IMG/VR virus record: IMGVR_UViG_3300042507_008775
Span: 1 to 26,685 of that record
DNA length: 26,685 bases
Reading direction: 5' to 3' (one strand)
From: a virus
The stretch's first letter is position 1. Every line of letters begins with the position of its first letter. The notes beneath the pieces were generated by a model. The model searched no databases, was not told where the DNA came from, and saw only the letters and a list, made by a program, of their open reading frames with translations. The translations under genes and the position numbers were made by a program. Positions 5,547 to 23,161 of this stretch are shown piece after piece.

Positions 5547-6332
5547 ATGAAAGACAAATCCAAAAAACTTGACTTTGCCAATGTAAATGGCATAAAAATG
5601 TCAGAATTTTTAGACAGATTTACTCATTTTGATGAAAATCTTCTTTTAGAGATTACTCCAAATGAGTTTTATGCAAAAACCTACACTCCTGATAGAAGTG
5701 CTATCAAATATTCTGCTTTGAAGTTAGATGAAATACTTCAAATAAAAGATGAAACAATCCCTGATAACCTTAAAATAGGATTAATTGGTATTAGACAATA
5801 TCAGCAAGCCCTTAAATTCTTGGAAGGCTCCGAACAAGTATCTATGGCTGTTCAGTATATGACTATTGCAGGATTAGATACTGAAGAAGAAAATGTTTCC
5901 ATTAAAACTACATTTAATAATAATAAAGATTTGCAATTTTCCTTTGAAAATGGCTCTTTAACCATCTATGGAATCATTACAAATGATAAGTTTTTCAATG
6001 AGATAGCAAATATTGATAATCCTACCTTCTCTTTTGACCTTTCTTTAGAAGATTTGGTAAAAATCAAAAAATTTGCTAATATTGATAAATTAAATAATAA
6101 CTTAATTGCAGAATATAGAAAAGGAACGGTTATTTTGGGAAATCAGACCTTCAAATATAGACTCGCTTCTCAAAATAATGAGGGTGCAAGTGAAAGTATT
6201 GCAAGATTCCCTAAAAATTATTTGAATATGCTTGATAGTGAACCATATAGAGTTAAGGTAAGCGAATCAAGAATTGTATTTACTTCTGAAGATTCCCAAA
6301 CTATTTTGGTTGTAGGAAGAAACGATGCCTAA
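5547..6332 (+). CDS. 45: Sliding clamp (T4 gp45-like DNA polymerase processivity factor)
   Basis: This 261-residue protein shows the two-domain layout of PCNA/gp45 clamps. Residues about 14-100 (NGIKMSEFLDRFTHFDENLLLEI) match the pattern of a PCNA first domain, with a central YTPDRSAIKYSALKLDEIL segment. Residues about 155-175 (SFDLSLEDLVKIKKFANI) resemble the second-domain helix of gp45. The C-terminus SRIVFTSEDSQTILVVGR looks like the last clamp strand pair. T4 gp45 is 228 residues, so this one is slightly longer. It would encircle DNA as a trimer and tether the polymerase, and in T4 it also activates late transcription. The gene overlaps the polymerase gene by 8 bases, which supports coupling and the assignment. 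A good AAAGGA site precedes the ATG. The clamp loader genes (44/62) are not in the window. Confidence 0.7.
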   Translation: MKDKSKKLDFANVNGIKMSEFLDRFTHFDENLLLEITPNEFYAKTYTPDRSAIKYSALKLDEILQIKDETIPDNLKIGLIGIRQYQQALKFLEGSEQVSMAVQYMTIAGLDTEEENVSIKTTFNNNKDLQFSFENGSLTIYGIITNDKFFNEIANIDNPTFSFDLSLEDLVKIKKFANIDKLNNNLIAEYRKGTVILGNQTFKYRLASQNNEGASESIARFPKNYLNMLDSEPYRVKVSESRIVFTSEDSQTILVVGRNDA

Positions 6333-7557
6333 TGGACTAAAATATACGGATATAGACCTTGAAACCGCTACTTATGAAGAAATAAAGGCGGAAATAGATA
6401 GGTTGAAGAAATTGAATCATGATCTTTATAATGAAGAGCAAGGTATCAAAATCTTTATTAATTCCGTATATGGTGCATTTGGTAATACTCATTTCCTATG
6501 CTTTAATGTAAATGTAGCAGAAGCAATTACTCAGCAGAGTGTTGATATATCTTTACATGCTAAAAAAATATTTGATAATTATTTTACAAATCATTGGCAT
6601 AAAGATAAAAAACTACATAAACAACTTGGGATTGAATCTGATGTTAAACCTTTAGGTGAAGAAAGCCTTTTGATTCAAGGAGATACGGATTCTGCATATT
6701 TTCGGTTTGATAGAGTTATTGAATCTGCAAAATATGCAGGAGACTCTCCTGTTGACTTCATTCTTGATGTTTATAAATATCGGTTGCATAATTATATCGT
6801 AAATGCGTATGATATGTATGCAAAAAAGAGAAATACCCAAAATCTTATGGACTTTGAGTTTGAGAAGTTAATAAGAATTGGTATATTTATAGCCAAAAAG
6901 AATTATGCTATTGAACTTGCATTCAAAACTACTGCAATTAAAGTGGAAGGAGATGAAGTTTCAATAGAAGGAATCAAATACGATGGAGGAAAATTATCGG
7001 TAACAGGTCTTGAGGCAGTTAAACCTTCTCATCCATCGTGGTGTCGAGCAAAATTACAAGAAATGCTTAATCTTCTTCTTCATTCCTATAAGGATAGTGG
7101 TAAAATAAAATATGAAGATATTTTAGTTACCCTTAAAAAATGGCGTAAAGAGATGGAAATGAAAGATTTAGATGAAATTTCCGAAACCAAAAAAGTATCA
7201 GATTATGATAAATGGATTATTAATGATAGATCGGAAATAGTTGTTAAATCTAAATGTCCTATGCATGTTAGAGGTTCAGCTATTTACAATTATACATTGT
7301 CTCGTTCAAAGTATAATATGAAATATCATAGAATTAAGTCAGGTGATAAAATCAAACAATATTATGTTAAATCAAATACCAAAAAAGATGACATATTTTG
7401 TTATTTACCACAGAATCATCCAAAAGAATTTGCACCATTTATAGATTATGATAAACAATTTGCGAAAAAAATTATAGAACCTACTAATAGATTACTTGAA
7501 GTTATTGGTGTTCGAGCAATACCAGATACTTTAATTGTTATTAACTCTTTATTCTAA
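6325..7557 (+). CDS. 43: Family B DNA polymerase, C-terminal half (split gp43)
   Basis: The 410-residue product starts just before polymerase motif B (K42 to G50, KIFINSVYG) and contains motif C (GDTDS, D120 and D122, palm metal ligands). It also has the thumb KKxY motif (AKKNYAIEL), the KCPMHVRG motif seen in T4/RB69 gp43, and a short hydrophobic C-terminus (INSLF) in the place of the clamp-binding tail of T4-type polymerases. Missing are the 3'-5' exonuclease domain and palm motif A (DxxSLYP), which carries the other catalytic Asp. The protein therefore cannot work alone and must pair with an N-terminal half encoded elsewhere. The ATG is real: it overlaps the clamp stop by 8 bases, and the preceding 40 residues look like fingers-helix sequence, not a truncated remnant. 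Split gene 43 is known in some T4-like phages. The break here is in the fingers. Confidence 0.92.
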   Translation: MPNGLKYTDIDLETATYEEIKAEIDRLKKLNHDLYNEEQGIKIFINSVYGAFGNTHFLCFNVNVAEAITQQSVDISLHAKKIFDNYFTNHWHKDKKLHKQLGIESDVKPLGEESLLIQGDTDSAYFRFDRVIESAKYAGDSPVDFILDVYKYRLHNYIVNAYDMYAKKRNTQNLMDFEFEKLIRIGIFIAKKNYAIELAFKTTAIKVEGDEVSIEGIKYDGGKLSVTGLEAVKPSHPSWCRAKLQEMLNLLLHSYKDSGKIKYEDILVTLKKWRKEMEMKDLDEISETKKVSDYDKWIINDRSEIVVKSKCPMHVRGSAIYNYTLSRSKYNMKYHRIKSGDKIKQYYVKSNTKKDDIFCYLPQNHPKEFAPFIDYDKQFAKKIIEPTNRLLEVIGVRAIPDTLIVINSLF

Positions 7558-7570
7558 AATATAAAAACTT

Positions 7571-8860
7571 ATGGCAAAGCAAAAAGAACAATCGGAAGAA
7601 TCAGTAAAATCTGCAAAAGGTTCAATCCTTTCACGATTAAAAAAAATAAACCCAGATGCGGCACTTATTAGTGAATCAGCTTTTGGTGATATTAAAGAGT
7701 GGATTCCAACTGGAAACTATGCTTTGAATTGTCAAATATCAGGTTCATTGTATAAAGGGCTTCCATCCAATAGGATTATTGGTATTAGTGGTCCTTCGGG
7801 AACAGGTAAAACCTATTTGGCTTTGAATATGGCAAGAGAAGCACAAAAGATTGGTTATCATATTCTTTATTTTGATACCGAATTTGCTATTGATGAAAAT
7901 CATGTTTCAAAATTTGGTATTGACACTAATGAATTTACTTTAATACCTGAAGATGTTATTCATAATGTAAAACATCAGATTGTTGAGATATTTGAAGCAA
8001 TGAAAGATGCCATTTCTAGTAAAAAAGATCCAGGTAAGTTTATGATTATTATCGATTCTATTGGTAACTTAAAAACCGCCAAAGAAGATAATGATTCTAA
8101 ATCAGGTGATCATAAAAGAGATATGACAAGACCTTCTGAAATTAAATCTCTTTTCAGAACAATTACAGTTCCATCTGGTAAATTGAATGTTCCCATTCTT
8201 TTTGTAAACCACACTTATACTGATACAACCGCTTATGTCCCAACTGATAAAATTGCAGGTGGTTCAGGTGTTCAGTATAATCCATCTGTAAATATTATTC
8301 TTTCAAAAGCAAAACTCAAAGAAGAAACAAAAGCGTCAAAAGAAGCTAATATGACTCAAACTGGTATTATTGTAACTTCTAAACTTGAAAAGTCAAGATT
8401 TACAAGACCTATCCCAATTAAGTTTCATATTAATTTCTTTACTGGAATGAATAAGTATATTTTCCTTGAAAATTTCGTAGATTGGGAAACTTGTGGTATT
8501 CAAAGAGGTTCTTTAACTAAAAAAGTTATTAAAAACCCAGTATTAGATGAACAAGGTAATCAAGTCATTTATCGTGGCAAACCAAAATTTGAAGAAATTG
8601 AAACAGATGAAGTAGAATTTGTGGCCGATGATAATGCGAAAACTTATGCTGTAAGACATTTAGGTAAGAACATCAGAAGTGCAAAAGACCTTTTAACAAA
8701 AGAAGTTTTTACACCTGAAGTTTTAAAAGCATTGGATGAAAAAATGGCCAAAACATTTTTATTACCTGAAGCTGTTAATGATGATGAATTCTCCGTCCTT
8801 GATGAAGACCTTCAAGGTATGGGTTTAGATTTAGAAAACAATGATGAAGATTCGGAATAA
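7571..8860 (+). CDS. uvsX: UvsX-like RecA-family recombinase
   Basis: This 429-residue RecA-fold strand-exchange ATPase is of the T4 UvsX type. Visible motifs are Walker A GPSGTGKT (residues 74-81), the catalytic glutamate region DTEFA (E104), Walker B FMIIIDS (D162), and the SPSGK-to-NHTY stretch with a TDKIAGGSGVQYNPS L2-like loop. The C-terminus is strongly acidic (ENNDEDSE), as in UvsX and RecA, where such tails restrain DNA binding. T4 UvsX is about 390 residues, so it is slightly longer, with an insertion around residues 320-350. It would form filaments on single-stranded DNA for recombination-dependent replication and repair. It lies 13 bases after the polymerase gene in the replication operon. 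UvsY and gp32 partners are not in the window. Confidence 0.9.
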   Translation: MAKQKEQSEESVKSAKGSILSRLKKINPDAALISESAFGDIKEWIPTGNYALNCQISGSLYKGLPSNRIIGISGPSGTGKTYLALNMAREAQKIGYHILYFDTEFAIDENHVSKFGIDTNEFTLIPEDVIHNVKHQIVEIFEAMKDAISSKKDPGKFMIIIDSIGNLKTAKEDNDSKSGDHKRDMTRPSEIKSLFRTITVPSGKLNVPILFVNHTYTDTTAYVPTDKIAGGSGVQYNPSVNIILSKAKLKEETKASKEANMTQTGIIVTSKLEKSRFTRPIPIKFHINFFTGMNKYIFLENFVDWETCGIQRGSLTKKVIKNPVLDEQGNQVIYRGKPKFEEIETDEVEFVADDNAKTYAVRHLGKNIRSAKDLLTKEVFTPEVLKALDEKMAKTFLLPEAVNDDEFSVLDEDLQGMGLDLENNDEDSE

Positions 8861-11032: not shown

Positions 11033-13006
11033 ATGAGTTCTTATTTATCTCTAAATGGTGATTATGCCATCATAAGTCAATCTATTACTAATTTATCAAG
11101 GGTTAGTAGTTATCAGATTGTAGAAAATGTTGATTATGATGATGTTGATAATACCACTGTTGAAAAAGTCTTTCGTTGGAGTTACGACCAAGAAACTTAT
11201 TCTTCATGGGTTGAGTTAAATCAAACTAATGTTGAAAATGTATCTTTAACTAATCAAACAATTCTTTATCTTCAAATAAGATACACTCTCATATCAGGTT
11301 CGCCTCTTACAATCAATAGCATTGAACCATTAATTATTACGATACCTGAAAGTACTGATGATAATGTAATTCAACCTCCATCTAACGCATATACATCTGG
11401 TAATCATAGGGGTGCAGCATTTTTAAATAATTTCTATTTTGATCCATATGCGGTTAATTTAGCCGTAGAACTACAAAGAAAACTCTCCTACAATGTAAAC
11501 CTCATATTTGGTCATAAAGCTGCTTATATCAGAGTTACACCACAAATGCGATCATTAGATGTCATTCTAAGAGAATATGGAATCTATGAATCATCAAAAG
11601 ATTACAAATGTGTTAAAATATTAGTCCCAAATAATCAATTCCCAGATTCAAAATTAAATTTCAATCCATTTAATATTGATTATGAAGAACCTTTTGAAGT
11701 CCATATAGATAAACGATATTTTGAATCATTCTTTGGAAAGGGAATTGGGCCTCAAAAGCGAGATATAATTTATTTACCGATAGCAAATAGATTGTTTGAA
11801 GTTGCATCTTCAACGCAACATAGAGATTTAATGTACAAAGACCTTTATTATAAAGTATCTTTGATTAAATATGCAGATAAAGCAAATGTTTTGAAAGATG
11901 AAACTATTATGAGTGAATTGGATGAATTATCAAATTCTACGGCAGAACTCTTTGATAATAAGATTGACCAAGAATTAAAGAAGATAAATAATACCCAACA
12001 ATTTACTGTTGCTACAAGAAAATCTGATAAAGTAAGAGATTATATTGATAGCAACCTTCTTATTGAAGAAAGAGATTTAGTAAATTATCATACACTTATA
12101 TCACATTATCGTTATGATTTGAGTGCTTCTATCACAGATAGCAATAATGTTGTAAGAACTATGGTTGATTATTTAGTTCCTGTAACATGGGATGAAACAA
12201 GTGAAAGAGCTTTAACATGTTGGTTCTTATTAAGAAATCCAACATCTCTAATTCGTTCTGTTACTATTCTTGAAGAATATGGAACAGAATTGGTAATAAC
12301 TACCAATGCTGATGTTGGGGCTTCTGTTGGAGATACGGTAACATTTTCTAAAACAAATTCTGAACTTACATTTTATGCGACAGTTTTGGAAAAAATAAAC
12401 GCTACAAAGATAAGAGTTCAGATAACTGATTCTGTGCAACAATATTTAAATAACACATATCCAGATTGGTCATGTAATTGTGTAGGTTTGAAAGTTAGAA
12501 AAAATTATCCAAGAATTTTTATAGATGGGTTGTATAATAGTCAAGGATTTCGTTTAGAAAACCATGATAGAAGATTCTTTAAGGCAACAGTCGGTAGTGA
12601 TATTTATGATTTTATTTTACCGAATAACTTAAATTTGGATACTTGGTATTGTTTGGTATTCAACTATTCTGCAAAATATAAGCAACTTTCTTTAACCATA
12701 TTAAAGAGAAAGTGGAATCCGAATACAAATACACCAACGACTACAGAAATGGATGTAGTTTATGAATATATCTATAATAATATTGAAATAAATGATGTAT
12801 CTCATCCATATAAATATAAAGTATTGGCTAGTTATATGAAGATGACTAATCTTCGTTTAATGTCTGTTACCATTGAACCTGAAAAAATGGTTAAATTTTT
12901 AAATGAATCAATAGTAGCAGATTCCGATCAATCAATTATTATTGATAATGCTATCCCAAGAATGCGACTACCTTATGTCGGTGGTCATCCAAACAAATTA
13001 TTGTAA
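11033..13006 (+). CDS. gp14-like neck domain fused to lectin-like C-terminal domain
   Basis: This is a 657-residue virion protein. Residues about 170-285 resemble the T4-type neck protein gp14: FEVHIDKRYFESFFG aligns with the usual VSRRRF strand, KRDIIYLPIANRLFEV with the GDIIYFP...LFEI motif, and MYKDLYYKVSLIKYAD with the following YKL...F strand pair. The first 120 residues form a separate beta-rich domain. Residues about 360-640 include WYCLVFNYSAKYKQLSLTIL, a jelly-roll/LamG-like strand pattern. T4 gp14 is 256 residues, so this one is far longer. Its partner in gene order is the small terminase 32 bases downstream, matching the T4 order 14-15-16 without gp15. Neck function is therefore moderately supported. 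An adhesive role for the C-terminal domain is inference. Confidence 0.6.
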   Translation: MSSYLSLNGDYAIISQSITNLSRVSSYQIVENVDYDDVDNTTVEKVFRWSYDQETYSSWVELNQTNVENVSLTNQTILYLQIRYTLISGSPLTINSIEPLIITIPESTDDNVIQPPSNAYTSGNHRGAAFLNNFYFDPYAVNLAVELQRKLSYNVNLIFGHKAAYIRVTPQMRSLDVILREYGIYESSKDYKCVKILVPNNQFPDSKLNFNPFNIDYEEPFEVHIDKRYFESFFGKGIGPQKRDIIYLPIANRLFEVASSTQHRDLMYKDLYYKVSLIKYADKANVLKDETIMSELDELSNSTAELFDNKIDQELKKINNTQQFTVATRKSDKVRDYIDSNLLIEERDLVNYHTLISHYRYDLSASITDSNNVVRTMVDYLVPVTWDETSERALTCWFLLRNPTSLIRSVTILEEYGTELVITTNADVGASVGDTVTFSKTNSELTFYATVLEKINATKIRVQITDSVQQYLNNTYPDWSCNCVGLKVRKNYPRIFIDGLYNSQGFRLENHDRRFFKATVGSDIYDFILPNNLNLDTWYCLVFNYSAKYKQLSLTILKRKWNPNTNTPTTTEMDVVYEYIYNNIEINDVSHPYKYKVLASYMKMTNLRLMSVTIEPEKMVKFLNESIVADSDQSIIIDNAIPRMRLPYVGGHPNKLL

Positions 13007-13038
13007 AATTCTATAATTTTATAATTTAGGAAATAATT

Positions 13039-13737
13039 ATGGATTCAAAGAGTCAAGATTTAGATATTCTAAGAGAACTTGAAAAAGTCAATAATGAGAT
13101 TCAAGGCAGAATACAAAATGATCCAAAAATACTTCAGTCTGTTACAAAGCCTAAAACTGGTTTTACAGATTTTCGTAAAATATTAGATGAAACCAATCAA
13201 AGTGTAAGACCCATAGTTGAAGCATTTTGTGAGTCATATGTTTCAACTGAAAATATGTTAAATCCAAGAGTTCAACAAAGACTTAATGTTGATTCAATTG
13301 CTCTTTCTGAAATATTATGGAAAAAAGCAGTAAGTGATGTTGCTTTAATTCAAATTATGGAAAGAATTGATTCTGGTGATGATGATTTCAAAATGTATAC
13401 AGCACTTGCTTCATTATTAGGTTCTAAAAATAATTTACCAAAAGAACTACTTCAGACAATTATGGTTCTTGAAAAAAACTATAAAGATTTGAAGAGTGAA
13501 CTATTTGAGCAGAGTAAGTTACCGATAGATGATATTGAAGGTGTTAATGCCAATTCTATGAAATTTAGGGGAACTCGTAATCTTCTTATGGCTATCAAAA
13601 ATGCCTCAGAAATAGAAGATAGTAGAAAAACTTTAGAGGAAGAAGAAAAACTCAAAGATACCACAGAAGAAAAAATTGATATTGTTAGGTTAAAATATCA
13701 AGAAAATAATAATTCAGATAACGAAAATTCTGTATAA
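13039..13737 (+). CDS. 16: Small terminase subunit (T4 gp16-like)
   Basis: This is a 232-residue helical protein. Residues about 119-155 (MYTALASLLGSKNNLPKELL and on) match the coiled-coil core of gp16 ([20 protein letters not shown]). Residues about 170-200 (NANSMKFRGTRNLLMAI...SRKTLEE) match the gp16 segment with FMGSPTEL and QEAREK in the same order and spacing. It would form a ring that regulates the large terminase and recognises DNA for packaging. T4 gp16 is 164 residues; the extra length here is mostly N-terminal (residues 1-100, charged and helical). An acidic, Asn-rich C-terminus follows. A TAGGAAAT site precedes the ATG. The large terminase gp17, normally next, is absent from the window, and an SDR-like gene takes its place. 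Confidence 0.7.
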   Translation: MDSKSQDLDILRELEKVNNEIQGRIQNDPKILQSVTKPKTGFTDFRKILDETNQSVRPIVEAFCESYVSTENMLNPRVQQRLNVDSIALSEILWKKAVSDVALIQIMERIDSGDDDFKMYTALASLLGSKNNLPKELLQTIMVLEKNYKDLKSELFEQSKLPIDDIEGVNANSMKFRGTRNLLMAIKNASEIEDSRKTLEEEEKLKDTTEEKIDIVRLKYQENNNSDNENSV

Positions 13738-13747
13738 ATTTCTTATA

Positions 13748-13763
13748 TTGTATTAGAATACAA
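13748..13763. promoter_or_regulatory. Perfect 7-bp inverted repeat upstream of the SDR-like gene
   Basis: TTGTATT-AG-AATACAA lies in the 49-bp gap after the small terminase, 23 bases before the ATG at 13787. The arms are perfect, and the left arm overlaps TATATTG, a partial match to the Bacteroidota -7 box. It may be an operator controlling separate expression of the downstream gene. An AAGGA ribosome binding site follows at about 13775. This is inference from symmetry and position. Confidence 0.35.
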
Positions 13764-13786
13764 ATAGATTTATTAAGGATTTTTTA

Positions 13787-14602
13787 ATGAAAACCGCTAC
13801 CTCTTTTCTCTTAACTAATAATGAAGAACGAGTTATTAAGAACTCTATAATTATGCTTGGTTTGAAAGATAAAGAATATAAAAATTCTGATTCTTCTAAT
13901 TCATTTATTGAATTTACAATTCATTTAATTGAAGATACCATTTCAAAACATAAAGATATAGAATGGTTTATCTTTGATGCTCAATTAGAAAGTGATAGTC
14001 AAGAGAATATGTTAATGTTCAATGCTTACCTCCCATTATATCTCCATAATAAATATCCAAATTTGAAATTTATACATATTACAAAAGGTAGTGTTTTTGG
14101 GAATGATAATTGGAACAATTCTTCTGAAATAGATAAACACTCTCCTGAAAATTATTTTTCAAAATCAATCTCTATTGGAGAACAAAAGAGTGATAGAACA
14201 TGGAATTTAAGATTTGATGTTTTTGACGATGAATTATTAAATAGAGAATTTTCCGAAGGTAAAGTATATTATGGAGAAATTGATAAAAAATACTCTTTAA
14301 TAACGAATAATGCTGCCAATAAAATAATAGAAGGAATTATTGATAATCATGCAGAATTAAAAGCAGATACATATCATATTATTCCAAATAATACACAGAC
14401 TGAATATGAGTTATTGCATTACATAGCATGGTCTAAAAATGCAAAAGGATATATTGAAAGATCATCTTCGATAGTTCCCATTAATAATGTTCTTAAAACT
14501 TGTAAAAAGAGAGAACTTTCTAAAATTTGGGATTTTGCTGGTTATCCTGAAATACCAAATTTCAAAGAATTATTTGATGAAATCACTCAAGAGTTAGTAT
14601 AA
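13787..14602 (+). CDS. RmlD-like short-chain dehydrogenase/reductase, degenerate
   Basis: The 271-residue protein follows the pattern of extended SDR sugar-nucleotide reductases such as dTDP-4-dehydrorhamnose reductase. WFIFDAQLESDSQENMLMFN (60-79) mirrors the usual NaaA...E...N stretch. KFIHITKGSVFGND (94-107) mirrors the ISTDYVFDG strand. SPENYFSKSISIGE (119-132) mirrors YGxSKxxGE, and the C-terminal NNVLKTC...GYPEIPNF mirrors RmlD ends. The nucleotide-binding GxxGxxG at the N-terminus is not visible, and the catalytic YxxxK is one residue short (Y123, K126). It may thus be catalytically altered or use only the fold. An AAGGA site and palindrome precede it, and a bidirectional terminator follows. 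If active, it could modify surface sugars; if not, a binding or structural role is possible. Confidence 0.55.
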   Translation: MKTATSFLLTNNEERVIKNSIIMLGLKDKEYKNSDSSNSFIEFTIHLIEDTISKHKDIEWFIFDAQLESDSQENMLMFNAYLPLYLHNKYPNLKFIHITKGSVFGNDNWNNSSEIDKHSPENYFSKSISIGEQKSDRTWNLRFDVFDDELLNREFSEGKVYYGEIDKKYSLITNNAANKIIEGIIDNHAELKADTYHIIPNNTQTEYELLHYIAWSKNAKGYIERSSSIVPINNVLKTCKKRELSKIWDFAGYPEIPNFKELFDEITQELV

Positions 14603-14652: not shown

Positions 14653-15363
14653 TTATACTGGCTCTGTTAATTTTTCAATAGTCCATGATAAAGCCAATCT
14701 AATTGATGCCTGAACATCTCTTCTACAATATTCAGTAATCTCATCAATTTTTCCATCATAATAAAATTCCTTAACGCTTTCACCTTTGACTTCACCTTGC
14801 TTCGGAGAAGGTACGCCCATTAATTGACAAACTACATCAAAATTACACATACCATTTATAGTATAGGCATCAGTCCAAACTCTATACAAATCATATGCAG
14901 CAATTTCCCAAGGCTTTTTATCAATAACATCAAAATGAGATGGTGGTAAAATATGATTTGCAAGCATTCTACGATAGACATAAGGTATATCAAATCGCTT
15001 TATATTATATCCTGATAAAATATGTTTATGAAACTTTGTATTACATAATTTTCCAAATTCCATAAGCATTTCTTTTTCACTCATTGTAGAATCATTCAAA
15101 GATTCAACCTTCCACTTTTTTGTATCTACATCAAAATATCCATAAGATATGCAAATAATCTTGCCATATTCAGGATATAGAGAGCCATATTTTTCAAGCA
15201 TAGATTCGGGCTCATTCTTATAGGCATCGTTCATTTTACATTTGTCTAACCAAATATTTGCCACTTCTGATTCATTCTCTTGATATTCGGCAAAAGTGTT
15301 GTGCCTAACTGTAGTTTCAATATCAAAAAATAAACAATTTTGCACATAATTTAGCGTTTGCAT
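14653..15363 (-). CDS. PolB-like 3'-5' exonuclease (DnaQ fold)
   Basis: I take the ATG at 15363 (MQTLNYVQ), which has AAGGA 7 bases upstream. A GTG two codons earlier lacks this spacing. The 236-residue product carries all DEDDy exonuclease motifs. Exo I is FFDIET (D14, E16), Exo II is GYNIKRFDIP (N120, D125) and Exo III is YCRRD (Y212, D216). The PWEIAAYDLYRVW segment is typical of the PolB-like exonuclease 2 group (Pfam DNA_pol_B_exo2). It should degrade single-stranded DNA or primer 3' ends. Since the polymerase in this window lacks its exonuclease half, this enzyme might proofread in trans, but that role is speculative; T4 DexA is a comparable stand-alone nuclease. It has its own promoter and ends at a terminator, so it is probably a single-gene unit. 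Confidence 0.88.
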   Translation of the reverse strand: MQTLNYVQNCLFFDIETTVRHNTFAEYQENESEVANIWLDKCKMNDAYKNEPESMLEKYGSLYPEYGKIICISYGYFDVDTKKWKVESLNDSTMSEKEMLMEFGKLCNTKFHKHILSGYNIKRFDIPYVYRRMLANHILPPSHFDVIDKKPWEIAAYDLYRVWTDAYTINGMCNFDVVCQLMGVPSPKQGEVKGESVKEFYYDGKIDEITEYCRRDVQASIRLALSWTIEKLTEPV

Positions 15364-15400
15364 AAACACATCCTTATAGTATTAAAAACTAATTATACTA

Positions 15401-15975: not shown

Positions 15976-18900
15976 TTATAATGGTATTCTTGTGCCACTA
16001 TTGCCACCACCACCACCAGTACCACCTGGAACAGCTTTCTTTATTATATCCCATTTATGTCTTTGTTCATAAGGATTAGTTTTTATGTTCAAAAATCGAT
16101 TGCTTCCTATTCCACCTGTATCTGTCATTAGATACACACCTTCTACTAAATTTGGTGCAATGATGTTTTTAATTTCTATTTTAACATATCTAATATCAAA
16201 AGTATTATTACCCCCACTCAAAAGAGATTGTCCTTTTTCAGTTAATTGTGAATAAATAATATCACCTACTACTAAATACTGAATTGTATCTACTTGAACA
16301 ATAACTCTTCTATTATTTGTCTTAAAACCATCGTATGTAAATGGTGTAAATTTATAGAACGATTCAGTTGTTCCGTTTGATAAATTCTTAAAAGTTAATT
16401 CATTTCTTACTTGACTATCCCAATCAATAACTTTACCGTATACAATTTTGTCCGTGTTTTCAGAAGGTGGGTTAGTACCTGTACCTGAATTAGATCCTGT
16501 ATTATTTCTTACATTTCTATTTCTTTCTCTAGCAATAGGAGTAAGATTATATTGTGGATCTGAAAAATTATTATTTCCACTTGCTGTATTTGTTGTACCA
16601 CCTATCAGTCTATTCAGTGTTGCATTAACATTTGAATTAGCATTAGTACCAACTGAAGAACCCGATCCAGCAAGTTGGAAACCTTTCTTTGAAGTATCTA
16701 GTCCAGCATCAATAGTTATTGGGTTAAAGCCAGTTGATGGCAATACGCCTAAATCATTACCTGATTTACCTGCGAAATCTACATAATTAATTTTACTTGC
16801 TAAATTTGTAATAGTCACATTGTTATTATTATTTATACCAATGTTTCTATTCAAAATATCAGATGCTCTAACTCTACTCCCTTGTGTTCCTTGTGTTCCT
16901 TGTGTACCAGTTCCTTGGTTACCTTGATTACCAGTTCCTTGATTACCAGTTCCTTGATTGCCTGTACCTTGATTACCAGTTCCTTGATTGCCCGTACCTT
17001 GATTACCAGTTCCTTGATTACCAGTTCCTTGATTACCTTGGTTTCCAGTTCCTGTATCTGTAGGTGTCGCATTTTCTAAATCTTCAATAGATTTTAATAT
17101 TTTATTAAGTTGGTCTTGAAATGCAGCTATATTAGCATTTTCTGCCTCAGCTGCTTTTTTAGCTTGATCTCTTAAATCTCTTTCTCTTTGATTGAGAATT
17201 TTTTCACGACTATTGACATCATTCTGTAATGTATTAAGTAAATTGGATTGATTTGTTTGAGCAAGTTTTTGAGCATTTAATCTTGCTTCAAGTGCCAACA
17301 ATTCAGACGCTCTTTGATCCAATTCAGATTGTCTTGAATTAAGAGATAATTGCCCAGTACGAATCTTATTAAGAATTCTTTCTAATTCAGCTTTTCTTAT
17401 ATTTTCAATATCATCTTTAACTTTATCAGCATCTTCCATTCTTCTCCATTTACCTGTATAAAGCGTTGTTTCACTTACACCTGAACCAGTTGGAATAACT
17501 TGAATAACTTGAAGCATACTTTTAGCTACAAAGTAACTTACACCATCAAAAATCAATTCAAAATTATCTGTATCCCCTTTTGAATAATATTCTTTTGAAA
17601 TAATATTAAATTCTTTATTTGCTACTGCTCCAACATAAGTATCGCTAACTTTTACTTTTATAAAGGAAGGTACTTTTGATGTGATGTAAAAAATACCCTT
17701 TTCGATAGCATAAATATTGGATGCTTCTTTTGCAGGTATTTTAAAAATAACTTCACCTTCTGCTAAATTAGTAGAGTAAAACCCTTCTATTTTTGAGAAT
17801 TTAACTCTTTTATTATCATATTCTATTACAAGGAATAAATCAACATCATATCGTAAATCAAGACTTGTTGTTTGATTTCCCTCTAAATATCTATGCATTT
17901 TGAATTTGACATAATTCTCATAAGGGTGAATGAGAAGAATTGCTTCACCTTGACCGAAAATAACATCCCAATTCCAAACAGATTCCGTTGTAAATGTTCC
18001 GTCACTTTTTAAAATAACATTAGATGTATTTACAGCAATTTCATTAAAATCAAAAAATGTAGGAGTGTATAGTTTTTCAATCTTCTTTTCTATATTAGAT
18101 TTATTAACTTGAAGTTTAGTCTCTTCTATAATTTTATTATAAATCTTAAAAGAACGTACATCGGTATTTAAATTAACCTTTTCAATTTTTCTGCCATAGC
18201 GTTTTGGTTCAAAAGAAGTTACTGATGCAGTTCTCACAATTTGTGAACCTGTATCTTTATCAGTAAGTCTCATCACATAATCTATACTAAAGGAATATGC
18301 AGAATCTGCATTTTTCAAGATGGGTCTAAATCTTTTTGGAGCATTAAAGTCTCCTTCCTGTATAGATACAAAATAATCACTCTGAACTTGACTAAAACCT
18401 ACTTGCTCGTAAATATACAATTCGTGGAAAACATAATAGTCTCCACCAATACCATTAAGATTAGTGACTAAATCTTCAACGAAACCACCTTGCCATGAAG
18501 GATAATATTCAAAACAATCTTCTTCATCATTCTCAACAATTACTGCATTAAGAAGACTAAAAGAATCTTGTTGTTTATAGGTAACATCGGTAACATTCCC
18601 AGTAGTTAAACTAAGAACAGTTCCATTATCATTACTTGTAGAAATTTCTCTAAGAGTAATAGAAATTAGACCATTCTTTTCAAAACCTTGATTATCAGAG
18701 GATAACCAATATGCTAAAGCTCCGCTTGTGGGATTAGAGTAATACTCTTCATTCAAATAGAAAAGGGAAGGGATTAAAACTTCAATATATCTATCATAAC
18801 TTCTTCCTGCAATTACTATAGGACGAGCATTGAATTTAATATATTCATCGCCCTTTAAATATGCTATTTGAGCTATTGTACATTTTTTACCTGAAACCTC

Positions 18901-19296
18901 AGGATATTCAACACTCAAAAGCAAACCATCTAAATCTTCTAAATTATATCCTGATAAAAGATGAAGTTTTAAAGTTTCATATTCAACTGGCCATTGCGTA
19001 GAAGTTAAATTCCCTAAAAGTTCTTGAGAAAGATTTGAAGCATCATATACATTATATGGAATGGCTCTATCTTGGTCTAAATGTGCCCAAGACCTTATAT
19101 CAGTTAATCTAACGGCAGATCTATCTAAAATATTAGAAGTAGGATTATTTCCTTTGGTTACATTTAATATCTGTCTTTCATTTGTATAAGAAGAATCTAT
19201 TAACAAAAAAGACTGAGTATTTGTAGATATAGTTGTTACATCGTAATCTAATTCTACTAATGCATAGTTTGATATTTGAAGTAAAGATTTTGCCAT
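15976..19296 (-). CDS. Large baseplate/tail protein with coiled coil and GTGNQ repeats
   Basis: This 1106-residue protein has four regions. Residues 1-620 form several beta-rich domains of unknown family. Residues about 622-745 are a long, Arg/Glu/Gln-rich coiled coil (IRKAELERILNKIRTGQL to LKSIEDLENA). Residues about 748-805 are a pentapeptide repeat, GTGNQ (eight copies plus GNQ and GTQ variants). Residues 806-1106 are low-complexity Asn/Gly/Thr followed by a beta-rich C-terminal domain (GKVIDWDSQVRNELTFKN to RHKWDIIKKAVPGG) and a Gly-rich tail. The layout (domain, trimerising coil, flexible rod, C-terminal domain) suggests an elongated oligomeric tail component. The ATG is 1 base from the stop of the gp5-like gene, indicating translational coupling with the spike. 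No enzymatic motif is visible. Confidence 0.8.
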   Translation of the reverse strand: MAKSLLQISNYALVELDYDVTTISTNTQSFLLIDSSYTNERQILNVTKGNNPTSNILDRSAVRLTDIRSWAHLDQDRAIPYNVYDASNLSQELLGNLTSTQWPVEYETLKLHLLSGYNLEDLDGLLLSVEYPEVSGKKCTIAQIAYLKGDEYIKFNARPIVIAGRSYDRYIEVLIPSLFYLNEEYYSNPTSGALAYWLSSDNQGFEKNGLISITLREISTSNDNGTVLSLTTGNVTDVTYKQQDSFSLLNAVIVENDEEDCFEYYPSWQGGFVEDLVTNLNGIGGDYYVFHELYIYEQVGFSQVQSDYFVSIQEGDFNAPKRFRPILKNADSAYSFSIDYVMRLTDKDTGSQIVRTASVTSFEPKRYGRKIEKVNLNTDVRSFKIYNKIIEETKLQVNKSNIEKKIEKLYTPTFFDFNEIAVNTSNVILKSDGTFTTESVWNWDVIFGQGEAILLIHPYENYVKFKMHRYLEGNQTTSLDLRYDVDLFLVIEYDNKRVKFSKIEGFYSTNLAEGEVIFKIPAKEASNIYAIEKGIFYITSKVPSFIKVKVSDTYVGAVANKEFNIISKEYYSKGDTDNFELIFDGVSYFVAKSMLQVIQVIPTGSGVSETTLYTGKWRRMEDADKVKDDIENIRKAELERILNKIRTGQLSLNSRQSELDQRASELLALEARLNAQKLAQTNQSNLLNTLQNDVNSREKILNQRERDLRDQAKKAAEAENANIAAFQDQLNKILKSIEDLENATPTDTGTGNQGNQGTGNQGTGNQGTGNQGTGNQGTGNQGTGNQGTGNQGNQGTGTQGTQGTQGSRVRASDILNRNIGINNNNNVTITNLASKINYVDFAGKSGNDLGVLPSTGFNPITIDAGLDTSKKGFQLAGSGSSVGTNANSNVNATLNRLIGGTTNTASGNNNFSDPQYNLTPIARERNRNVRNNTGSNSGTGTNPPSENTDKIVYGKVIDWDSQVRNELTFKNLSNGTTESFYKFTPFTYDGFKTNNRRVIVQVDTIQYLVVGDIIYSQLTEKGQSLLSGGNNTFDIRYVKIEIKNIIAPNLVEGVYLMTDTGGIGSNRFLNIKTNPYEQRHKWDIIKKAVPGGTGGGGGNSGTRIPL
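16881..17052 (-). repeat. 15-bp tandem repeat encoding GTGNQ
   Basis: A 15-bp unit (plus-strand form CCTTGATTACCAGTT) is repeated with few substitutions and occasional 9-bp units. It encodes the GTGNQ/GNQ array of the large baseplate protein. The near-identity at DNA level, including synonymous positions, points to recent expansion by slippage or recombination. All units are multiples of three, so the frame is kept. Confidence 0.9.
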
Positions 19297-20052: not shown

Positions 20053-20100
20053 CTATATATCAAAAAAAATATAACTTGAAAATTTTATCTAAATATTACC
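20053..20100 (-). promoter_or_regulatory. GATATATA element (site 2) within conserved 47-bp block
   Basis: On the minus strand the octamer (20054-20061) follows TTATAT and a T-run, and ends 6 bases before the ATG at 20047. The surrounding block, from the stop codon region of the upstream gene to the octamer, is nearly identical to 5449-5495. If the octamer is a -10 box, transcripts would be almost leaderless. Otherwise it acts at another level. Confidence 0.5.
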
Positions 20101-23100
20101 TCAATCCTATATTTTTAGGACTTGCTGTATTATTAATATTAGGTTCTTCCAATTCAATTCTAGTTTGAATTGTATTTCTATTTGTAGAACCTTCTAATTC
20201 TATTTTAGTTTGTGTAGATTGATTTCTTATAACTCCTATTGTAGGCTTTTCTACTAATCCTATATTTTTCAATGGAGTATTAGTTAAAGGAGAAGAACCT
20301 TGTAATTCAACATTTTTCACATCAAATGATCCTTTACTTCCTTGTCCTGTTAAATTAACATTACCAAAAGATGTTGAATTAACTTCACTTCCTTGTAAAT
20401 TTACGTTTTTATCCATAGAAGTTTGTGGTGTTTTACCAGATAATTCTACATTCTTTTGCATAGTTATAGAATTTTGAACACCTTTTAGTTCAACATTTTG
20501 AGTAGAAATATTAGTTTGAGGAACACTACCTTGAAGTTTTACATTTGTTTCAGTTAAATCACGAAGTGGATTTGCTCCTAATAAAGTTTCTTTTCCTAAA
20601 TCTTTAACATCAGATTGTGTTGATGTCATATTACCAACATTAGGAGATGAAAAATTTCTCATAGGTTCTTTACCTTCAAGTGTCTCAACACCCAAATTAT
20701 TATTAGGACGAGTAGTAAATCCTTGTAAATTGGCATTAGTTTCTATTAAATCTCTTTGTGGAGAAGAACCTTCGAGTTCAATATTAGCATCCATTTTATT
20801 TACAGGGGTATTCCCTTCTAAATTAGCATTCGTTTCTGTCAATGTTCTTTGTATAGAAGGTGATGCTAAATCAATAGTTTTTTCATCAAAAGAGCGAATC
20901 GGAGAAATTCCAACTAAATCTACATTTGGACTTTCAAAAGATGTAGCAACATTTGGAGATATAAGATTTTCTTTTTGAGAATTAAAAGATGTTTGAGGTG
21001 ATGCTCCAACTAAATCAATACCTGAAGGGTTTAATTCTTTTAAAGATTCATTACCAGTTAAAGATACATTATTGTTATTAAATCTATTTAGAGAAGATGT
21101 ACCTACTAAATTAGCATTACTTGGAATCAAATCCTTTAGAGCTTCTGCTCCTGTCAAATCAGCATTACTTGGAACTAAATCCTTTAAAGGTTGTGCTCCT
21201 TGTAAATTGGCTTGATTTGGAACTAAGTCCTTTAAAGGTTGTGCCCCTGTTAAATCAGCATTACTTGGAACTAAATCCTTTAGAGGTTGTGCCCCTGTTA
21301 AATCAGCATTACTTGGAACTAAATCCTTTAAAGGTTGTGCCCCTGTTAAATCAGCATTACTTGGAACTAAATCCTTTAAAGGTTGTGCCCCTGTTAAATC
21401 AGCATTACTTGGTGTTAAATCTGTTTTCTTTCCAGCTCCTTGTAAATTAGCATTCGTTTCATCAAACGAAGTTTTAGGAGTGGAGCCAGTCAGATTTTCT
21501 TTTATTGGATTTAGTTTTGTTTCTTTCCGAACTTCTGAAAATTCAACATTATCAGGCATTGTTGTTTCTACTCTTGGCTTTTCAAGTTCTATATTTTTTT
21601 GGTCAAATAATTTATTTAAAGGATCAGGATTTAAGAATAAACTTTGTCCAGGTCTACCGATAGCTTGGAATCTAGGATCAGATCCTTCTCCTGTTAAATT
21701 TGCTTGAACATCACTTAAAGAACGTTGAACACTTGGAGCGGATAGTTGAATATTAGAAGGAATACCATCTCTTAAATTAGGAGGAGTAGGTCTTCCTGAT
21801 GTTTCAACATTAATACCTAATGCACCAGCCAAAGCAGGATTTGAAAAGTTTTGAGCAACTTGATTCAAGTCACCATTTAATATACCTAACCCTACTCCAG
21901 CTGCGGAACGATATAGTTCGTTTCCGTAAACATTTTTTGCTATATTTTCAGTAGCCATACTTAATGCTTCTTGAGCAAGTTCAGATGCTGTATCTCCAAA
22001 GAAATCACCTACTGAACCTAAAAATCCATCACTAGTTGTTCCACCTGATAATACCCCACCTATTCCAAATGGTAAAGCACTCACACCTTCGCTAATACCA
22101 GCACCCAAAACATTTCCAAAACCATTATCTTCTAAAATAACACGCTTATTATCACCTTTCTCTCTTTCAAGATTTTGAAATTCTTTCCAAGAAGGAAGTA
22201 TAGGTTTAGCAACATTCTTCAAATTTTCTGATAATTTTGCTACTCCATTTTCATCACTAGATTTTAAAAGGTTTTCTAAAAGATTATCACTTAAAGCATA
22301 TTTTAACAAACTATATGTGTTTGTTTCTAAAACTCTACCGATATTTATAGTAAATTCAGAGTCAAATGCTTTTATATTTGAATGACTAAGATTTGAAATA
22401 CTAGAACTATTGTACATATCAAATTCACAATCTTGACAATCAAATAATAGGCATGAATAATGATTGTCCCACCATTGTAGTCGTTTTACGAAAGAAAGAG
22501 CACCATCATTAACTCTACCTAATAGTTTACCACCAATATTACTACCATTGAAAACATCTATATCTCTTAAAGCATCAAGTGCTTGTCTTGGATTTATAGA
22601 GTAATTGTCTTCTGTGACTGCAAGTTGTCTGAAATCTCCAATTAAAATGCTCATTCTAAATCTACGCATATTAATTGGTAAAATCCATCTTCTATATTTC
22701 CTATCGTATGCGGCCTTACGATATAAATCCTTCAAAGCGTGGATTTTATAATCTATACTTTCAAGAGTTTTAATAGTAATAGTTGCTTCTGATCCTCCTC
22801 TAGAGGAAAATTTTGATGGATATCCTTGAGAATATAAACTTCCTAAACCATCTACACTTTGAAAATACCATGGAGTTTTTTCACTAATTGATTTGAGCAT
22901 TTCGATGAATTTTTCCATCATTCTTGCTCTTTCAGGTTCTCCAACAGAATAAAGAAATTGAACAGCAGATTCAGGACCACTTGTTAAAAGTCTATTAGAT
23001 ACATAATCAGGATGTTTTGAATCTCTTGGAACAAATTCAAACTTCAAATGAAATATAGGATATGTAGGGTCTTCATAATTATAATTATTAAGAATACCTG

Positions 23101-23161
23101 GGTCTCTAACACTTGATATCCCTAAAAATTTTCTTAAAAAAGCATCTGCTGCGTATACCAT
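20096..23161 (-). CDS. Tube-initiator-like baseplate protein with ~35 16-residue repeats
   Basis: This 1021-residue protein has two halves. Residues 1-290 contain YRRWILPINMRRFRMSILIG (156-175) and LLFDCQDCEFDMYNSSSISN (238-257), patterns seen in T4-like tube-initiator and baseplate proteins of the gp48/gp54 type, and they have a folded-domain composition. Residues 350-450 are Gly/Ala-rich. From about 460 to the end it is a repeat array with a period close to 16 residues and consensus xxxxNxxLxGxxPxxx. Residues 581-676 contain near-identical copies of LVPSNADLTGAQPLKD; outer copies are divergent. No coiled coil is visible. The N-terminal half should sit at the tail-tube/baseplate junction, and the repeat half is probably an extended or solenoid-like chain. 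Position between gp13-like and gp5-like genes supports a central tail role. Confidence 0.75.
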   Translation of the reverse strand: MVYAADAFLRKFLGISSVRDPGILNNYNYEDPTYPIFHLKFEFVPRDSKHPDYVSNRLLTSGPESAVQFLYSVGEPERARMMEKFIEMLKSISEKTPWYFQSVDGLGSLYSQGYPSKFSSRGGSEATITIKTLESIDYKIHALKDLYRKAAYDRKYRRWILPINMRRFRMSILIGDFRQLAVTEDNYSINPRQALDALRDIDVFNGSNIGGKLLGRVNDGALSFVKRLQWWDNHYSCLLFDCQDCEFDMYNSSSISNLSHSNIKAFDSEFTINIGRVLETNTYSLLKYALSDNLLENLLKSSDENGVAKLSENLKNVAKPILPSWKEFQNLEREKGDNKRVILEDNGFGNVLGAGISEGVSALPFGIGGVLSGGTTSDGFLGSVGDFFGDTASELAQEALSMATENIAKNVYGNELYRSAAGVGLGILNGDLNQVAQNFSNPALAGALGINVETSGRPTPPNLRDGIPSNIQLSAPSVQRSLSDVQANLTGEGSDPRFQAIGRPGQSLFLNPDPLNKLFDQKNIELEKPRVETTMPDNVEFSEVRKETKLNPIKENLTGSTPKTSFDETNANLQGAGKKTDLTPSNADLTGAQPLKDLVPSNADLTGAQPLKDLVPSNADLTGAQPLKDLVPSNADLTGAQPLKDLVPNQANLQGAQPLKDLVPSNADLTGAEALKDLIPSNANLVGTSSLNRFNNNNVSLTGNESLKELNPSGIDLVGASPQTSFNSQKENLISPNVATSFESPNVDLVGISPIRSFDEKTIDLASPSIQRTLTETNANLEGNTPVNKMDANIELEGSSPQRDLIETNANLQGFTTRPNNNLGVETLEGKEPMRNFSSPNVGNMTSTQSDVKDLGKETLLGANPLRDLTETNVKLQGSVPQTNISTQNVELKGVQNSITMQKNVELSGKTPQTSMDKNVNLQGSEVNSTSFGNVNLTGQGSKGSFDVKNVELQGSSPLTNTPLKNIGLVEKPTIGVIRNQSTQTKIELEGSTNRNTIQTRIELEEPNINNTASPKNIGLR
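21134..21421 (-). repeat. 48-bp tandem repeats encoding a 16-residue unit
   Basis: Six consecutive 48-bp units in this stretch encode LxPSNADLTGAxxLKD-type repeats. Several are identical or differ by one or two bases. Divergent repeats of the same period extend on both sides across roughly 20096-21785. Near-identity in the centre and divergence at the edges is the expected signature of unequal recombination within an older array. Confidence 0.92.

What the first reader, a model, noticed from the sequence alone, without database searches (positions are those of the whole stretch)
6325..7557. DNA polymerase split in the fingers, with palm motif A missing from this half
The gene begins right before motif B and carries motif C, thumb and C-terminus, while the exonuclease domain and motif A are missing. 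It is intact, expressed as part of an operon (8-base overlap with the clamp) and ends with a clamp-binding-like tail. It must therefore assemble with a separately encoded N-terminal half to make an active site. The palm is divided between two chains. Split gene 43 has been reported in some T4-like phages; how close this break point is to those needs alignment.
Basis: partly seen in the sequence, partly recalled or inferred. Interest (0 to 1): 0.62.

Follow-up and report, generated by a model that had tools for sequence, protein, structure and literature searches.

The report
C-terminal half of split phage replicase
This gene makes only the back half of a phage's DNA-copying enzyme; close relatives encode the front half about 30 kb away, so the working enzyme should be a two-part complex, an arrangement already known from a few T4-like phages but found here across a large, old group of giant phages.

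Summary
ORF 6325-7557 is the intact C-terminal half of a T4 gp43-like family B DNA polymerase. It starts at the fingertip, just before motif B, carries motif C, KKxY, thumb and tail, and lacks exonuclease and motif A. Four relatives (77-85% identical) start at the same place behind the same clamp-like gene, with dN/dS about 0.1.

The missing half was found. Contigs G032 and G055, overlapping or abutting the G003 contig that carries the C-half, encode a 473-476-aa protein with exonuclease and motif A that stops after the first fingers helix. It lies about 32 kb upstream on the same strand. G055 (200 kb) has no other PolB.

The same split pair recurs in dozens of viral contigs, the Lak megaphages and cultured jumbo phages (PAU, PTm1, MA9V-1). 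The halves co-evolve (r=0.94). No intein or intron sits at the break, so non-covalent assembly is most likely; it was not tested here. For Aeromonas phage 25's split gp43, co-purification and activity have been reported.

The break point is that of the Aeromonas gp43A/B, but its origin is independent (AU p=2e-10). One intact member (G005) nests inside the split clade, suggesting re-fusion. Known kind, new large lineage.

The parts
6325..7557 (+). C-terminal half of the split gp43-like family B DNA polymerase (410 aa)
   Evidence: PHROG 262 positions 489-840 and PHROG 1918; fold match to RB69 519-893; conserved in 4 close contigs
6325..6447 (+). N-terminal leader and start of the second fingers helix (41 residues before the motif B lysine); the break point
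   Evidence: Aligned with RB69 fingers; the N-half partner of the group ends at about RB69 residue 507; model helix 17-53
6448..6474 (+). Motif B, KIFINSVYG (K42-G50; RB69 K560, N564, Y567, G568)
6679..6693 (+). Motif C, GDTDS (second catalytic aspartate pair; RB69 D621, D623); no intein here
6895..6906 (+). KKNY, the KKxY motif (RB69 K705, K706)
7519..7554 (+). C-terminal tail IPDTLIVINSLF, clamp-binding-like (not tested)
   Evidence: SLF/LF end conserved in most relatives, compare RB69 SLFDMFDF; model pLDDT under 50 at 406-410
6314..6319 (+). AGGAAG, ribosome binding site-like, 5 bases before the ATG
   Evidence: Read from the sequence
5547..6332 (+). Sliding-clamp gene (gp45-like by position), overlaps the polymerase half by 8 bases
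   Evidence: orthologues in front of the C-half in L005, L004, G006 and in front of the intact polymerase in G005; no Pfam match
7571..8860 (+). UvsX-like recombinase, next gene of the replication operon
   Evidence: PHROG 97, E=3e-61

Best explanation
The gene encodes the C-terminal subunit of the phage's own replicative family B DNA polymerase. The enzyme is a heterodimer. The N-terminal subunit (about 475 aa: N-terminal domain, 3'-5' exonuclease, first part of the palm with motif A, and the first fingers helix) is encoded about 32 kb upstream on the same strand. The C-terminal subunit (this gene) supplies the second fingers helix with motif B, the rest of the palm with motif C, the thumb and the tail. 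The two chains meet at the tip of the fingers and pair across the palm, so that the catalytic aspartate of motif A and those of motif C come from different proteins. Shown by sequence: both halves exist, are complete and conserved, share the break point, co-evolve and co-occur. Inferred: that they assemble without covalent joining and form the main replicase.
For: C-half identity and break point. N-half in the window's own group: PHROG 2062, E=2e-76, residues 44-472, all catalytic residues present, on G032, whose genes 31.3-44.5 kb are collinear with G003 0.3-14.7 kb at 71% weighted identity; G003 carries the C-half at 19.2 kb and is 75.5% identical to the window. G055 and G003 come from one metagenome sample, have equal G+C (0.302) and abut in a repetitive gene that is continuous in G032. 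No second PolB in 200 kb of G055. Co-occurrence: 20 of 23 N-anchored and 19 of 22 C-anchored long contigs carry the partner, none an intact enzyme; in 37 of those 39 pairs N lies upstream of C on the same strand, and the other two fit after circular permutation. Distances in the two halves correlate at r=0.94, 0 of 10,000 permutations as high. dN/dS about 0.1 in both halves. Precedent: 43A and 43B of Aeromonas phage 25 co-purify and have polymerase activity (PMC2988022), with the same break in 44RR.
Against: The N-half of the window's own genome is off the contig, so it is inferred from relatives. No single contig of the group carries both halves. The G055-G003 join rests on gene continuity and a 20-base end overlap within repeats, not proven. 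No experiment shows assembly or activity for this lineage. The lone C-half model has moderate confidence (pLDDT 77, pTM 0.58). The trees have long branches.
Confidence: 0.9

Rival explanations
1. A redundant or decaying fragment: the phage uses another complete polymerase and this gene is a remnant.
For: Only the C-half is on the window contig; the N-half is not within 18-19 kb upstream in G003 or G004.
Against: dN/dS 0.07-0.12 over five contigs; every catalytic residue kept; embedded in the replication operon; no other PolB in 200 kb of G055 or in 45 other contigs.
Confidence: 0.02
2. The halves are joined into one chain after transcription or translation, by a split intein or by trans-splicing RNA.
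For: Split inteins exist in this protein family: PTm1, Lak-A2 and LR756500 carry an intein at motif C whose halves lie on separate ORFs.
Against: Neither the end of the N-half nor the start of the C-half carries intein sequence in the window's group; Rfam finds no group I or II intron in the window or at the N-half loci; the C-half has its own ribosome binding site and start. The known split inteins sit at motif C, not at this break.
Confidence: 0.02
3. The C-half works with a different partner, the stand-alone exonuclease encoded at 14653-15369, so that the enzyme is divided differently.
For: A separate PolB-type exonuclease gene (PF10108) is in the window and in relatives.
Against: That gene lacks motif A and the palm. 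G006 has both the stand-alone exonuclease (88.2 kb) and an N-half with its own exonuclease and motif A (124.7 kb). The N-half of the window's group also has all exonuclease acids. The exonuclease gene may still assist.
Confidence: 0.02
4. The heterodimer exists but is not the main replicase (repair or accessory polymerase).
For: Not excluded by sequence; jumbo phages of a related group are reported to carry additional split PolIII-like parts (PMC7824862).
Against: Position with clamp-like, UvsX and helicase genes, and the T4 gene-order pattern, favour the replicase role; no other replicase was seen, but only PolB was searched for.
Confidence: 0.04

Closest known systems
Split gene 43 (43A/43B) of Aeromonas phages 44RR2.8t and 25 (T4-like)
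   Same: Same enzyme family, same break at the fingertip between the two fingers helices (44RR 43A ends near RB69 512, 43B starts 46 residues before the motif B lysine); exonuclease and motif A in one chain, motifs B and C in the other.
   Different: There the halves are neighbouring genes, with an untranslated spacer or a seg homing endonuclease between (PMC2988022); here they are about 32 kb apart in different gene groups with no mobile element. Independent origin: joining 44RR to the other splits is rejected (AU p=1.9e-10).
Split polymerase genes of jumbo phages PAU (gp105/gp110), PTm1 (ORF-236 and ORF-239/241) and MA9V-1 (MA9V1_135/138), and the Lak and LR7452xx/LR7565xx megaphages
   Same: Same clade and same break point; PHROGs already holds the halves as separate families 2062 and 1918.
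   Different: The window's C-half is at most about 34% identical to these by tblastn; PTm1, Lak-A2 and LR756500 have a further break at motif C inside an intein; the window's gene does not.
RB69 / T4 gp43
   Same: Closest solved structures; all catalytic residues match.
   Different: One chain; fingertip continuous.
Archaeal split PolB (Methanothermobacter PolB1/PolB2; Nanoarchaeum with a split intein), from general knowledge
   Same: Family B polymerase made from two genes.
   Different: Not compared here; as I recall, the archaeal break points and, in Nanoarchaeum, intein joining differ.

Membership tests
T4 gp43-like family B DNA polymerase | Motif B (Kx3NSxYG), motif C (DTDS), KKxY and thumb | tested here: met
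   fold match to RB69 519-893, Z 18-20
T4 gp43-like family B DNA polymerase | Exonuclease and motif A (DxxSLYP) in the enzyme | tested here: met
   Absent from this chain; present in the N-half of the window's group on G032/L118
Split gp43A/gp43B arrangement | Two separate complete ORFs broken between the two fingers helices | tested here: met
   N-half of the group ends at RB69 about 507, C-half starts 41 residues before K560
Split gp43A/gp43B arrangement | The two proteins co-assemble and have polymerase activity | not testable with these tools
   Reported for phage 25 (PMC2988022); only co-occurrence and co-evolution tested here
Split gp43A/gp43B of Aeromonas phages as a lineage | Common descent of the split | tested here: not met
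   44RR nests with T4 and RB69; AU p=1.9e-10 against one split clade
Gene broken by a homing endonuclease or intron | Endonuclease gene or intron at the break | tested here: not met
   Clamp-like gene overlaps by 8 bases, UvsX 13 bases downstream; Rfam empty
Split-intein polymerase (trans-spliced) | Intein N- and C-fragments at the junction | tested here: not met
   No extra sequence at the junction ends

The most novel reading that the evidence does not exclude
A heterodimeric family B replicase, split at the fingertip, is the ancestral and vertically inherited state of a large clade of jumbo and megaphages (most cultured members infect Bacteroidota). It arose independently of the Aeromonas split, has been kept with its halves tens to hundreds of kilobases apart, and was undone at least once by re-fusion (G005), whose single chain still carries the C-half leader in its fingertip.
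Probability: 0.75. Interest if true: 0.6.

Novelty: new variant of a known kind. Interest (0 to 1): 0.5.

Why it matters
A replicative polymerase whose catalytic carboxylates sit on two chains encoded far apart must be matched and assembled during infection. That the state is old, widespread and apparently reversible makes testable how fingers closing, proofreading and processivity tolerate a break at the fingertip. It also matters for annotation: the halves are scored as partial or hypothetical genes in many genomes, and surveys that discard short PolB fragments will miss the clade. The natural intact/split pair G005 and G006 is a ready comparison.

Tried and rejected
The stand-alone exonuclease as the missing half: it lacks the palm, and G006 has both. 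L059/G031 and L066/G014 as the window's N-half: G031 carries its own C-half, and G014 shares only about 30-40% with the window's group over most genes and has G+C 0.43. One contig carrying both halves of the window's group: none was found. Close intact relatives of G005: none in viral contigs; the next intact enzymes are 30% identical and from another lineage. The place of intact Flavobacterium phage MaF61: inside or at the base of the split clade, unresolved (AU p=0.30 for outside). RB69 start positions printed for C-halves, and the N-half end printed for PAU, are alignment artefacts and were not used; the count of residues before K560 was. Fingertip spans are rough: intact rows were cut 45 residues before motif B and some split rows begin at a stop rather than a start. 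The structure of G005 is of low confidence outside the N-terminal part and was used only for the low-confidence loop between helices 441-482 and 499-535. Literature searches for a description of this clade's split found none in the held library; many subscription papers are missing.

Full report
What is there. The window is a 26,685-base fragment of an uncultured phage (IMG/VR record). ORF 6325-7557 encodes 410 aa. It follows a clamp-like gene with an 8-base overlap and precedes UvsX, a small gene and a gp41-like helicase. The protein matches the gp43-like polymerase family only from position 489 of 856 to the end. A predicted structure aligns to RB69 gp43 from about residue 519-525 to 893 with Z 18-20. 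Motifs B and C and KKxY are complete; motif A and the exonuclease are absent.

It is a real gene with a real start. Four other contigs, 77-85% identical, begin within a few codons of the same column behind the same clamp-like gene. dN/dS is 0.07-0.12.

The other half. None of these five contigs (up to 79.6 kb) has an N-half. A profile of N-halves from G006 and the megaphages found 529 relatives, of which 80 were kept. One of these, G032 (L097), proved to belong to the window's group: its genes at 31.3-44.5 kb are collinear with the left end of G003, 71% identical overall, 91% over 760 aa and 81% over 950 aa; G003 is 75.5% identical to the window and carries the C-half at 19.2 kb. G032 encodes at about 17.6-19.0 kb a 473-aa protein with FFCDIEVEI (exonuclease), DFASLYPS (motif A) and the first fingers helix, ending in ...YEVEKEIEILKKHLESKK. 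Its relatives L397-L402 are 77-88% identical. L398 lies in G055, a 199,927-base contig of the same sample as G003, with equal G+C. Its right end runs into a repetitive gene that continues at the left end of G003 and is whole in G032, with a 20-base exact end overlap. If they are joined there, the N-half lies about 32 kb upstream of the C-half on the same strand. G055 has no other PolB.

How general it is. In 45 long contigs, 20 of 23 with an N-half had the C-half and 19 of 22 with a C-half had the N-half; none had an intact enzyme; 37 of the 39 pairs had N upstream of C on the same strand, 2.6 to 58 kb apart, and two more fit if the contig is circularly permuted. In Lak-A2, LR745206 and LR756504 the halves are 100-280 kb apart and on opposite strands. 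In the cultured phages PAU, PTm1 and MA9V-1 the halves are annotated separately, in PTm1 even as 'split DNA polymerase'. All catalytic residues are kept in both halves of every pair examined, apart from a glutamine for RB69 K486 in PAU and MA9V-1. N- and C-half distances correlate at 0.94.

Origin. Trees of the C-halves, the N-halves and both joined place 44RR with T4 and RB69, and all other split enzymes in one well-supported clade. Joining 44RR to that clade is rejected (AU p=1.9e-10), so the fingertip was broken at least twice. The intact enzyme of G005 lies inside the clade as the nearest relative of split G006 (100/97; 87/94 with more rows). Keeping G005 out is rejected (AU p=0.008; the group was named after the tree was seen). 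G005's gene sits directly behind the clamp-like gene, where the C-half sits in split relatives, and its fingertip holds a stretch (LTYSNINTNKIDSSMLKEEIERL) that aligns with the C-half leader. Ordinary single-chain relatives have about 40 residues between the two fingers anchors, split ones and G005 roughly 60-85, T4 and RB69 77 (rough). The simplest reading is a re-fusion, known from one contig only. The position of intact MaF61 is unresolved.

Mechanism. Shown: two complete, conserved, co-inherited genes whose products together make up every part of a gp43-like polymerase, with the break in a loop at the fingertip. Inferred: the chains bind each other non-covalently through the palm and fingers and act as the replicase. 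Support by precedent: 43A and 43B of Aeromonas phage 25 co-purify with polymerase activity (PMC2988022). No intein, intron or homing endonuclease lies at the break in this group.

Novelty. The kind (fingertip-split gp43) is known and biochemically supported in T4-like phages, and the halves of cultured members of this clade are in databases. New here, as far as the held literature shows, are the extent and age of the clade, its independence from the Aeromonas case, the wide separation of the halves, and the likely re-fusion.

Noticed in passing
window 14653-15369 (-): Stand-alone PolB-type 3'-5' exonuclease gene (PF10108, PHROG 25228), kept in all close relatives and in G006 beside the polymerase's own exonuclease; role unknown.
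   Followed up: partly
L210 (PTm1) 11522-14328; L022 (Lak-A2) 5974-8122; L218 (LR756500) 31706-35118: Polymerase C-half broken again at motif C: the intein's two parts lie on separate ORFs (VSR endonuclease between them in PTm1), so these polymerases come in three pieces.
   Followed up: partly
L033 / L316 (contig IMGVR_UViG_3300000563_000024): Single-chain polymerase nested inside the split clade: probable re-fusion.
   Followed up: yes
window 21107-21454, inside ORF 20096-23161 (-): 48-base tandem repeats (about 6 copies) coding for repeated NADLTGAQPLKDLVPS units in a large protein of the structural gene block.
   Followed up: no
window 16880-17037, inside ORF 15976-19296 (-): 15- to 24-base tandem repeats coding for a GNQGT-rich stretch in a 1106-aa protein next to the tail tube gene.
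   Followed up: no
L306 1-2478 and L408 19155-19927 (ends of G003 and G055): Both contigs end in one repetitive gene, which probably broke the assembly of a single genome of about 243 kb.
   Followed up: partly
G026:C1:92892-94535 and G031:C1:19559-21208: C-half ORFs of 563 and 579 aa with an insert inside the family match, possibly in-frame inteins at motif C; not read.
   Followed up: no
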